From assembly GCF_000010305.1 (NCBI RefSeq), contig NC_012489.1, forward strand, positions 3,355,646-3,419,645: a stretch of DNA of 64,000 nt, given 5' to 3'. The translations under genes and the position numbers were made by a program. Origin of the DNA: Gemmatimonas aurantiaca T-27 (lineage in GTDB: Bacteria; Gemmatimonadota; Gemmatimonadetes; Gemmatimonadales; Gemmatimonadaceae). Each line of letters begins with the position of its first letter. The first letter of the stretch is position 1. Positions 55,853 through 59,710 of the stretch are shown here, one piece after another. The notes under the pieces are model-generated. The model did no database searches. It had not been told where the DNA came from and saw only the letters and a program-made list of their open reading frames with translations.

Positions 55853-58216
55853 TCAGGCGAAGGTGACACGACGGAGGCGCAGCGAGTTTGCCACGACGCT
55901 CACCGAACTGAACGCCATCGCGGCGCTCGCGAGGATGGGGCTGAGCTGCAATCCGAACGCGGGATACAGCACGCCCGCAGCAATCGGAATGCCGATGACG
56001 TTGTAGATGAACGCCCAGAAGAGATTCTGCTTCATGGTACGCATGGTGCGACGCGACAGAGCGATGGCGCGCACGACCCCCTGCAGATCGCCGCGCATGA
56101 GCACCACGTCCCCGGCTTCCACGGCGATGTCGGTACCACTGCCGATCGCCATGCCGACATCAGCCTGGGCGAGTGCGGGGGCGTCATTGATCCCATCGCC
56201 CACCATGGCCACCACGGCGCCTTCGTCCTGCAGACGCTGCACTTCGCGCACCTTGCCGTCGGGCATCACGCCGGCCACGACACGATCCACTCCCGCGGCG
56301 CGCGCAATGGCCTGCGCCGTGCGCTCGTTGTCGCCCGTGAGCATCACCACGGTGAGCCCCAGCGCGTGCAGATCGGCGATCGCCCGTGGCGAACTGTCGC
56401 GAATGGGATCGGCCACTGCGACGAGTCCAGCCAGTGCCCCATCCATCGCGATGTACATCGGCGTGCGCCCCTCGCCGGCAAGCCGGACGGCGTCGGCTTC
56501 GAGCGCGTCCACCGAAATCCCCCAGTCGTGCATGAAGGCCGCGTTGCCCACGGCCATGGCCGCATCGTCCACCACACCCTGCACACCACGCCCGGTGACC
56601 GAGGCAAAGCTCTCCGGTGTGCCGAGCGTGAGTCCCTTGGCCTGGGCATGCTGGACGATCGATTCGGCCAGCGGGTGTTCACTCGCGTGCTCCACCGAAG
56701 CGACACGCTGCAGCAGTACATCGGCGTCGATGGCAAGCGCCGGTGCCACGAGGAAATCGGTCACGGTCGGCGCGCCCTGCGTGATGGTACCGGTCTTGTC
56801 GAGCACCACGGTGGTGATGTCGCCGGCCCGCTGCAGTGCCTCACCACCCTTGATCAACACGCCAAGCTGCGCGCCCTTGCCACTGGCCACCATCACCGCC
56901 GTAGGCACGGCCAGTCCCATGGCACACGGACACGCGATGATGAGCACCGCCACCGCCGACGCAAACGCACGCACCAACGGCGCCTGATCGGCCGCGAAGT
57001 ACCAGATACCAAATGTGAGTGCCGCAAGACCAATCACCACCGGCACAAACACTGCACTGATCTGGTCGGCCAGTCGCTGAATAGGCGCACGGGATCCCTG
57101 CGCATCACGCATGAGTTTCACGATCTGCGCGAGCACACTGTTGGCTCCCAGTGTGGTGGCACTGTAGCGGAATGCTCCGGTGCGATTGATCGTGCCACCT
57201 ATCACACGATCACCCACCTGTTTGGCCACCGGCAGCGATTCGCCGGTGAGCATGCTTTCATCCACGGCGCTTTCGCCCTGTGTGATCTGGCCGTCCACCG
57301 GAATGCGCTCACCGGGACGCACGATGATCACTTCCCCGGCTTCGATCGTATCGACGGGCGCGTCGACCTCGGCATCGAACCGCAACACACGCGCTGTCTG
57401 CGGCTGCAGATCCACCAGCGCGCGCAACGCCGCCGACGTGCGCTGCTTGGCGCGCGCTTCGAACATGTTGCCGGTGAGGATGAGAGCGATGATGATGATC
57501 ACCGCCTCGTAGTACACATCGGGCGCTACACCGCGGGTGGTAAAAAACGCCGGCGAAAATGTAGCGACCAACGAGTAGCCAAATGCCGCCAGCGTGCCCA
57601 CCGACACCAGCGTGTTCATATCGGCCGCGCCATGTCGTGCTGCCGCCCAGGCCCGCGTATAGAAGTGCCGGCCGGCCCACACCATCACCACCAGCGTTGC
57701 CACCAGCAGTCCACCGGTGAGCACCGAGGCCGGCACGGTGTACAGCCACGGCATCACACTACGCAGTACGGGATCGAGAGTGTCCATACTCCAGCGCATG
57801 AACGGATCGACGACCACCGCGCCGCTCGATTGCGCACCATGCGCATGGTCCTCGCCGGCCAGCATGGACATGAGTGGCATGCTCACGATCATCGCGATGA
57901 CGCCGATGACACCGCTCACCACCGCCTTGCGGCGCAGTTCGTGGTACTCGTCGTTCTGCGCGCGATCACGCGCTTCCTGTTCTTCGAATGCGGTCTGATC
58001 GGGATTGGCCAATGACGCGCCGTATCCCGTGTCCTCGATGGTCGCGATGAGCGACTCCGGCGACACCGCAGCCGGATCGAACGTGACCGTCGCACTCTTC
58101 ATCATGAGATTGACGTTCGCGTCGGCCACTCCGGGCTGCTTCTGCAGGGCACGTTGCACGCGCGACGAACACGCGGCGCAGGTCATGCCGGAGACAGGGA
58201 TACGGACAGTTTCCAT
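55853..58216 (-). CDS. copA: Copper-exporting P1B-type ATPase
   Basis: CopA pumps Cu(I) out of the cytoplasm. It has one N-terminal heavy-metal-associated domain with GMTCAACS (about residues 10-17), eight predicted membrane helices, TGES (about 324-327), the metal-site motif ACPCAMG (Cys429-Pro-Cys431), the phosphorylation site DKTGTITQ (Asp473) and [21 protein letters not shown] short periplasmic loop DHAHGAQ may bind metal. The length is 787 residues. It is preceded by copZ, 17 bp away, and followed by csoR. Confidence 0.95.
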
Positions 58217-58233
58217 GGCGCGCCTCGCGCGAG

Positions 58234-58443
58234 CTAGTGCGAACCGGTGAGCTGAAAGCCGGCGTCGGCCACGGCTTCGGCGAGTTGCTGCGAGGTGGCA
58301 CGGGAAGGGTCGAAGGACACCGTGGCCTCACCGACACCGACGGACTGCACGGTGACGCCATCGACCTTCGAGAGGGCCTTGTCGACGGCCTTCACACAGT
58401 GGCCGCAGGACATGCCGCTGATTTCGAGCTTGAGGGACTGCAT
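58234..58443 (-). CDS. copZ: Copper chaperone
   Basis: The 69-residue single HMA domain has the Cu(I)-binding motif GMSCGHC (about residues 10-16) and the usual beta-alpha-beta-beta-alpha-beta pattern. It is expected to deliver Cu(I) to CopA or CsoR. ATG 58443 has a GGAGG Shine-Dalgarno site 7 nt upstream. It is the first gene of the copper operon. Confidence 0.93.
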
Positions 58444-58462
58444 AAAGCCTCCAAGGGATATC

Positions 58463-58481
58463 GATACCCCCAGTGGGTATC
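58463..58481 (-). promoter_or_regulatory. CsoR-type operator of the copper operon
   Basis: GATACCC-CCAGT-GGGTATC is an inverted repeat with 7-bp arms and a G/C-rich centre, matching the pseudo-palindromic operators bound by CsoR. It lies 20-38 bp upstream of the copZ start, in the promoter region. Confidence 0.75.
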
Positions 58482-58522
58482 CGTTCCTTGAATGGTAGCA
58501 TACCCCTACCCCCTATGCAACT

Positions 58523-58797
58523 ACGGGGGCTGGGGAAACGGAAGCTGGGACGACGGGAGCTGGAAACACGGGAGCTGAGGAAACGGGAGCTGGACCCACG
58601 GAGCAAAACGGGGGCCGGACCAACGGGTCGTTTCCCGTAGTCCACCCCCCGCTATTCCCCGTTTCCCCAGCTCCCGTCGGTCCAGCTCCCGTAACTCCAG
58701 CTCCCGTAACTCCAGCTCCCGTAACTCCAGCTCCCGTAACTCCAGCTCCCGTCGTCCCAGCTCCCGTCGTCCCACCCCCCGTATCACCCGCTCCCGC
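58523..58797. repeat. Inverted pair of 15-bp tandem repeat arrays
   Basis: On the left, units of ACGGGAGCTGG plus 4 variable bases recur with exact 15-bp phase at 58523, 58538, 58553, 58568 and 58583, with a degenerate unit at 58598. On the right, the complementary core CCAGCTCCCGT recurs with exact 15-bp phase from 58667 to 58757, with degenerate units at 58772 and 58787. The arms could pair into a long cruciform or RNA stem. The right end overlaps the stop codon of the VOC gene. It fills the gap between that gene and the copper operon promoter; no gene is seen in it. Confidence 0.85.
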
Positions 58798-59710
58798 CTC
58801 CCCCCGTCACCTTCACCACCGTCCCCCAAGGATCCGCAAACTCCCCGTTCCTCCCCTCGAACCCTCCCCCGATCAGGCTCGCCTCCACCTCCGCCGGCTC
58901 CGGCACCACCACATTCCACGACAGCAGCCGCGCCTCATCCTCGCGTGGCCCCGCGGCCCCTTCGGCCCAGGTGTTGGTGCCCAGATGGTGGTGGTACCCT
59001 CCCGCGCCCAGGAACAGCGCCCCCGGGTACCGCCACACGATCCGGTCGAAACCGAGTGCCGCGTGATAGAACTGTGCCCCTCGGGCCAGGTCTCCCACGT
59101 GCAGGTGCAGGTGACCCATGACCGTGCCCGCCGGCATCCCCGTCCACGGTTCGCCACGCGCCGCCGCCACCACTGACGGGAAGTTGAACGGATCGGTGGC
59201 CATCATCAGCTCACGTCCCGAACGCTTCCATTCCGAGCGCGGACGGTCGGCATACACCTCGATGCCCAGACCATCCGGATCGTGCAGGTACAGCGCCTCG
59301 CTGACCAGATGATCGCTCGCCCCTGCCCGTGCCCCGATGTCGGACAGATGCTGCACGAACCGCCCCAGCGCCGGTCGGTCGGGAAGCAGAATGGCAAAGT
59401 GGTAGAGCCCCAATCGCGACCCCGGTCTGGTGACCTTGGTGCCCGGCCGCGTCTCGAGAATCACCAGCGGCTCACGCGCGCCGGCAAACCCCAGCTCCAC
59501 CAGATCGCCCGCCCGACGCAGCTCCGACAGACCGAGCACCTGGCTGTACCAGGCCAGCGACCGATCGAGATTGGATACCTGGAGATGCACCGGCCCCAAA
59601 CGGAGCGACGCCGGCAACCGATAGCCCGGGGGAGCCTCACCGTAGCTGCCGGCCACCGCCGGCTGTGGCACCGCAGCGCCACCGAACATGTCATGACTGG
59701 ATACGCCCAT
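58784..59710 (-). CDS. Two-domain VOC (glyoxalase/extradiol dioxygenase-like) protein, CatE type
   Basis: Two vicinal-oxygen-chelate modules are present (about residues 38-160 and 190-300). The first has LGPVHLQVSNLDRSLAWYSQVLGL and ends GLGIEVYAD. The second has VMGHLHLHVGDLARGAQFYHAALGFD and GGYHHHLGTNTW. These resemble CatE-like catechol-2,3-dioxygenases, which use Fe(II) or Mn(II). In the second module the position where a third metal-binding Glu is usual reads DPWGTVVKV, so activity is uncertain. The C-terminal GGGGSG lies in the repeat array. Length 308 residues. Its promoter has an exact TTGACA -35. Confidence 0.8.
   Translation of the reverse strand: MGVSSHDMFGGAAVPQPAVAGSYGEAPPGYRLPASLRLGPVHLQVSNLDRSLAWYSQVLGLSELRRAGDLVELGFAGAREPLVILETRPGTKVTRPGSRLGLYHFAILLPDRPALGRFVQHLSDIGARAGASDHLVSEALYLHDPDGLGIEVYADRPRSEWKRSGRELMMATDPFNFPSVVAAARGEPWTGMPAGTVMGHLHLHVGDLARGAQFYHAALGFDRIVWRYPGALFLGAGGYHHHLGTNTWAEGAAGPREDEARLLSWNVVVPEPAEVEASLIGGGFEGRNGEFADPWGTVVKVTGGGGSG

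What the first reader, a model, noticed from the sequence alone, without database searches (positions are those of the whole stretch)
58523..58797. A 15-bp-phased inverted repeat array between the copper operon and a VOC gene
Two tandem arrays with an 11-bp core (ACGGGAGCTGG or its complement) and 4 free bases keep exact 15-bp phase over five or more units on each side and face each other. The cores pair, so the whole stretch can form a long stem. I know of no named element with this form. It could act as a termination or insulator structure, a protein-loading site, or a rapidly evolving repeat.
Basis: seen in the sequence. Interest (0 to 1): 0.68.

Follow-up and report, generated by a model that had tools for sequence, protein, structure and literature searches.

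The report
Hairpin repeats paired with IVP genes
The repeat array beside the copper genes is one of about a dozen dispersed hairpin repeats, one of which encloses a small gene of the '23S rRNA intervening sequence protein' family, and such genes in many bacteria turn out to be framed by their own inverted repeat arrays, which looks like a mobile repeat system without a recognisable transposase.

Summary
In detail: 15-bp-phased arrays of ACGGGAGCTGG face each other at 58523-58797. They are not alone: the genome holds 87 exact cores, 76 in 12 arrays. One array's arms enclose a PF05635 gene (23S rRNA intervening-sequence protein, IVP). All three IVP genes of the genome lie between inverted arms of different sequence, and each arm type has gene-less copies. 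In the genus, 70 of 90 IVP loci have such arms against 0 of 269 random and 0 of 80 gene-anchored controls; likewise 22 of 26 in other Gemmatimonadota and 12 of 16 plasmid-borne IVP genes, mostly cyanobacterial. Eight of 9 informative relatives lack the element at the VOC-copZ site. I read the window array as a gene-less member of an IVP-linked repeat family, laid out like REP-RAYT, but PF01797 and RVT_1 are absent here. The association is shown; that IVP drives dispersal, and how, is inference. The open-access searches made found no description of it.

The parts
58523..58593 (+). left arm: five 11-bp cores (ACGGGAGCTGG or one mismatch) at 15-bp steps
58608..58618 (+). innermost left core, degenerate, after a 25-bp step
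58619..58641 (.). central loop segment
58642..58652 (-). innermost right core, degenerate, before a 25-bp step
58667..58797 (-). right arm: seven exact cores and two degenerate ones at 15-bp steps
58784..59710 (-). VOC (glyoxalase-fold) gene whose stop codon lies in the outermost unit of the right arm
58234..58443 (-). copZ-like HMA metallochaperone gene on the other side of the element
55853..58216 (-). copper P-type ATPase-like gene downstream of copZ (named by eye)
   Evidence: orthologue synteny

Best explanation
The array is a gene-less (non-autonomous) member of a dispersed inverted-repeat family whose gene-carrying member, at genome 3663679-3664209, holds a PF05635 four-helix-bundle gene (IVP) between the same arms. 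IVP genes and their repeats form paired families: one IVP lineage, one repeat type. Shown: the anatomy, the dispersal in the genome, the IVP-arm association, absence of the element from the same site in relatives, and absence of the Y1 and RVT_1 families searched for. Inferred: the basic IVP protein (probably a pentamer, judging from its relative 2GSC) recognises the repeat unit as a DNA or RNA hairpin, and copies arise when host replication or repair copies hairpin DNA to new intergenic sites, usually just after a stop codon. Slippage on 7-8 or 15-bp units then lengthens the arms. Any effect on the copper operon is probably incidental.
For: 76 of 87 exact cores lie in 12 arrays. Eight of 8 two-armed arrays scored share the 15-bp phase, and 7 of them also a 25-bp inner step in at least one arm. 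The IVP gene lies between the same units. The other two IVP genes of the genome have their own arms, and those arm types have gene-less copies too. Genus: 70 of 90 IVP loci have inverted arms (score >=35) against 0 of 269 random windows and 0 of 80 ORF-anchored controls. Other genera of the phylum: 22 of 26 against 0 of 25. Plasmids: 12 of 16 above the maximum of 240 shuffles. In three other genomes a ~336-bp hairpin occurs at 11, 10 and 12 places of >=300 bp, exactly two of which in each genome flank one IVP gene. At VOC-copZ, 8 of 9 informative relatives have gaps of 67-175 bp without array; the window has 343 bp. Ten of 12 arrays end within 82 bp of a flanking ORF's stop codon. Arm k-mers track IVP distance among non-orthologous loci (Mantel 0 of 500; cluster level 93 of 5000) and not the host genome (-0.026 against -0.027).
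Against: Movement was not seen directly and no target-site duplication was established. IVP genes are mostly old residents: 16 syntenic clusters, 16 changes on the tree where 15 is the least possible. The arm-IVP correlation is weak (rho -0.07 over loci, -0.135 over clusters). Twenty of 90 genus loci lack clear arms, among them most of the large cluster C. No catalytic activity is known to me for IVP. Spacer bases show no cross-arm pairing. Viral-contig IVP loci did not exceed the shuffle maximum (0 of 8).
Confidence: 0.6

Rival explanations
1. The IVP gene is a passenger: hairpin repeats spread by some unidentified agent, and IVP elements insert preferentially into hairpins, as 23S IVSs sit in rRNA helices.
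For: IVSs replace the tips of rRNA helices (PMC4990558, passages). Gene-less hairpins outnumber gene-carrying ones.
Against: Each of the three IVP genes in one genome has its own repeat type, and arm type tracks IVP lineage, weakly. Both are unexpected if any hairpin serves as a target.
Confidence: 0.2
2. Host-serving 3' structure or binding array: the hairpin stabilises mRNA ends, blocks read-through or binds a nucleoid protein.
For: Ten of 12 arrays lie just after a stop codon; strong fold.
Against: The site is empty in 8 of 9 informative relatives, the unit sequence is species-specific, and no terminator-like site was found. One array lies between divergent genes (L040).
Confidence: 0.12
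3. Local tandem-repeat expansion plus chance inverted duplication, with no relation to IVP.
For: Runs of identical spacers show tandem slippage.
Against: 12 arrays with one layout; association with IVP genes in several phyla.
Confidence: 0.04

Closest known systems
REP / BIME sequences with RAYT (TnpA-REP) genes
   Same: Small gene flanked by two inverted copies of a palindromic repeat that is dispersed gene-less through the genome, mostly extragenic (RAYT features from PMC2817692, abstract and passages read).
   Different: No Y1 (HUH) transposase domain in this genome. The central gene is a four-helix-bundle IVP, and the repeats are tandem arrays of 7-8 or ~15 bp, not a single 20-40 bp palindrome.
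23S rRNA intervening sequences (IVS) with S23/IVP ORF
   Same: PF05635 ORF inside a stem made of inverted terminal repeats. A role of the ORF in mobility has been hypothesised (PMC4990558, passages read).
   Different: Located between protein genes, not in rRNA. Arms are long phased arrays with many gene-less copies.
Short heptanucleotide repeats: TAACTGA of Beggiatoaceae; STRR of cyanobacteria (STRR recalled)
   Same: Heptamer tandem arrays, intergenic, origin unknown; possibly carried by a mobile element (TAACTGA: PMC4679880, passages read).
   Different: TAACTGA sets are direct, one of 170 inverted, and a word search of that paper finds no mention of 23S, S23 or helix bundle. Not tested here for IVP linkage.
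Avd of diversity-generating retroelements
   Same: Resembles PF05635 in sequence and structure (PMC10053308, passages read).
   Different: Works with a reverse transcriptase; RVT_1 is absent from 27 of 30 genus genomes, this one included.

Membership tests
23S rRNA IVS | PF05635 ORF inside the element | tested here: met
   Met for the family's gene-carrying copy L055 (E 5e-19); the window copy is gene-less.
23S rRNA IVS | Complementary ends forming a stem | tested here: met
23S rRNA IVS | Inserted in a helix of 23S rRNA | tested here: not met
   Window and the other own arrays lie beside protein-coding ORFs.
23S rRNA IVS | Excised by RNase III | not testable with these tools
   needs RNA work
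REP-RAYT | Y1 (HUH) tyrosine transposase between inverted REPs | tested here: not met
   PF01797: 0 matches in the genome, positive in 5 of 14 control genomes.
REP-RAYT | Dispersed gene-less copies of the same repeat | tested here: met
REP-RAYT | GT(A/G)G head on the palindrome | not tested
   not searched for
MITE of a known transposon | Terminal inverted repeats of a full-length transposon, with target-site duplication | tested here: inconclusive
   Inverted arms present; ends are ragged by eye and relatives too diverged to read a duplication. No search was made for other transposase families.
Intrinsic terminator | GC-rich stem-loop followed by a T run | tested here: not met
   0 found in 58200-59000
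Rfam RNA families | Match above gathering score | tested here: not met
   Only sub-threshold hits to microRNA precursor hairpins, best 75 bits against a gathering score of 168.

The most novel reading that the evidence does not exclude
IVP/S23 proteins are the dedicated proteins of a phylum-crossing class of mobile repeats with no transposase or reverse transcriptase of their own. Each IVP lineage maintains a private heptamer- or 15-mer-based inverted array and seeds gene-less copies around the genome. 23S rRNA IVSs, IVP genes inside cas operons and perhaps the unexplained heptamer repeats of cyanobacteria would all be products of this one class.
Probability: 0.35. Interest if true: 0.9.

Novelty: new variant of a known kind. 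Interest (0 to 1): 0.75.

Why it matters
What IVP (S23, 'four helix bundle') proteins do, and where rRNA intervening sequences come from, is an old open question (PMC4990558, passages). A private repeat around most IVP genes gives each protein a candidate ligand and each genome a set of natural copies to compare, so specificity and dispersal can be tested directly. It also suggests that IVP genes reported in cas loci (PMC3936711, PMC10910872, passages read) may be insertions: the two plasmid IVP genes between cas6 and cas4 seen here have inverted heptamer arms.

Tried and rejected
Known RNA families: only sub-threshold hits. Terminator: none found. RAYT origin: no PF01797. Retro-element origin: RVT_1 in 3 of 30 genus genomes, not in this one. 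Long matched stem under selection: spacers do not pair. Host-genome-driven arm sequence: no same-genome effect. A two-unit scan of the 84,980-species genome collection gave 5 loci. I read three, which look like coding Pro/Ala linkers by eye, and did not read the other two. In G011 two of the array-like matches are also in apparent coding linkers (L075), so short matches alone are not arrays. IVP from L055 found nothing in plasmids; a more typical IVP (L191) found 43 records. Nothing was found in phages. Hotspot against vertical descent: tree and synteny favour old residence; the tree is quick, on 116 columns, with many open forks. Arm period labels gave 8 changes on the tree for 45 labelled loci, with no shuffle control run, so they are not used as evidence.

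Rows dropped before counts: L116 and L155 (short flanks) before 90; L208 before 26. In some searches and 51 more IVP matches were listed than were fetched (92 of those; 27 new loci). 16 of 43 plasmid records were fetched. VOC orthologues: loci of 12 of the 25 genomes with a match (own included) were read; L186 and L190 did not show copZ and were not counted.

Full report
Observation. The window holds two facing arrays of ACGGGAGCTGG with 15-bp phase at 58523-58593 and 58667-58797, plus a degenerate core 25 bp further in on each side. The array lies between the stop codon of a VOC gene and a copZ-like gene, both on the minus strand.

Not a local accident. The own genome is one contig of 4,636,964 bases; from memory this is the size of Gemmatimonas aurantiaca T-27, but no call names it. 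It has 87 exact cores (47 forward, 40 reverse) against 2 + 2 for the reversed control. By my count of that list 76 lie in 12 arrays and 11 are single. Nine arrays have units on both strands; L036, L041 and L052 are essentially one-armed. In the eight two-armed arrays scored (L055 was left out), steps are 15 bp throughout apart from a 25-bp innermost step in at least one arm of seven (L037 lacks it; L040 also shows one 85-bp step to a stray match). Ten of 12 arrays end within 82 bp of the stop codon of a flanking ORF (nine within 50 bp). The two exceptions are L040 (between divergent genes) and L041, where no such stop was found. Pfam supports most of these ORFs, not the one left of L037.

The gene-carrying copy. 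At 3663679-3664209 (L055) the two arms enclose a 124-aa ORF on the minus strand that matches PF05635, 23S rRNA-intervening sequence protein (E 5e-19). Its only solved relative by sequence is 2GSC (E 1e-6). A typical IVP of the phylum matches 2GSC at 4.5e-30. The IVP domains are basic: median pI 10.0, 83 of 92 at 8.5 or more.

Generality. The genome has three IVP genes. All three have inverted arms (scores 42, 89, 50; control maximum 29), with three unrelated repeat types. The other two arm types also have gene-less copies: the L088 type matches at 21 places (two of them its own arms), many in opposite-strand pairs within about 150 bp, and the L087 type at 7 places (one its own arm). Several of these were read and are plain hairpins, for example L265, L269 and L271. 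In the genus 28 of 30 genomes have PF05635. I fetched 92 loci; 90 had usable flanks. Arms score 30 or more in 73 of 90 (controls 2 of 269) and 35 or more in 70 of 90 (controls 0 of 269; Fisher p about 1e-56). ORF-anchored controls give 0 of 80, and 11 VOC-anchored loci at most 23. In other genera of the phylum, 22 of 26 against 0 of 25. For IVP genes on plasmids (13 cyanobacterial records, one each of Azospirillum, Riemerella and Gemmatirosa), 12 of 16 exceed the maximum of 240 mononucleotide shuffles. Those arms are mostly heptamer arrays by eye. The eight viral-contig loci do not exceed that maximum. Within the genus the best self-repeat lag of an arm is 7 in 27 of 68 (shuffled 3 of 68) and 14-16 in 19 of 68 (shuffled 8 of 68).

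Gene-less copies in other genomes. The ~336-bp hairpin beside the IVP gene of G002 matches at least 300 bp at 11 places in G002, 10 in G015 and 12 in G019. In each genome exactly two of these flank one IVP gene, and the others are away from every IVP gene listed (my count, both strands merged). In G008 only short matches were found, and none in the own genome. In G011 and G012 gene-less arrays share their unit, by eye, with an arm of one IVP locus there (L073 with L164; L079, L081 and L189 with the one arm next to L168).

Presence and absence. Loci for 11 relatives' VOC orthologues were read. In nine the next gene is copZ. Eight have 67-175 bp between the genes and no array; the window has 343 bp. 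The ninth (L189, G012, 193 bp) carries a different array of ACGGGAGCG type at the same place. In G015 two IVP loci with identical IVP domains and 93% identical arms lie in non-matching flanks (L106, L125), which fits one recent duplication or transposition. That genome is a draft, so this is weak.

Old genes, young arms. IVP loci fall into 16 syntenic clusters (grouped by me from flank matches), and the protein tree needs 16 changes where 15 is the minimum (shuffled mean 60.2, 0 of 200). So most IVP genes were inherited at their site while the arms changed. The L055 site is shared on its left flank with five species whose arms are different. Arm similarity follows IVP distance weakly among different sites (Mantel 0 of 500; cluster level 93 of 5000) and is not raised within a genome. 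The L055 IVP belongs to a strongly supported clade of 20 rows with mostly ACGG/ACTGCG-type arms (arm type judged by eye).

Mechanism. REP sequences with RAYT genes have the same layout (PMC2817692, abstract and passages), but no Y1 transposase domain is in this genome, and RVT_1 is found in only 3 of 30 genus genomes. I therefore propose that IVP recognises its repeat and that host replication or repair makes the copies. Only the association is shown; recognition and copying are inferred. IVSs in 23S rRNA have the same core plan (ORF inside a stem) and an old hypothesis of mobility (PMC4990558, passages).

Literature. Searches in open-access PMC were read as listings, plus the passages named above. 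None of what I read described repeat arrays around IVP genes. IVP genes in cas loci are reported (PMC3936711, passages; PMC10910872, one legend). Most subscription papers and bioRxiv were not covered.

Noticed in passing
L226, L231, L238 (plasmids of Anabaena, Pseudanabaena, Picosynechococcus): IVP genes sit between cas6 and cas4 or between cas10 and cmr3. Two of the three have clear inverted heptamer arms (scores 56, 61; the third 29), so they may be insertions rather than cas genes.
   Followed up: partly
L189 (genome G012), VOC-copZ intergenic region: A different array of ACGGGAGCG type sits at the same intergenic site as the window element, a possible hot spot or an ancestral element with replaced units.
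   Followed up: partly
window 58521-58919 minus strand: A 132-aa ORF reads through the array as a RELEL repeat; gene callers could annotate it falsely.
   Followed up: no
L075 and L077 (genome G011): Array-like units appear inside apparent coding sequence (Pro/Ala linkers, possibly an N-terminal extension), by eye.
   Followed up: no
L087 (genome 995518-995826): This IVP gene has a TGA inside the PF05635 match, so it may be decayed, while its arm type persists in gene-less copies.
   Followed up: no
L048 (genome about 2336084-2336145): A 9-bp tandem repeat (CGTTCACGC) abuts the right arm; similar GTGAACGGC edges occur at L050 and L054.
   Followed up: no
L106 and L125 (genome G015): Identical IVP domains within roughly 120-bp tandem hairpin blocks at two places with different flanks.
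   Followed up: partly
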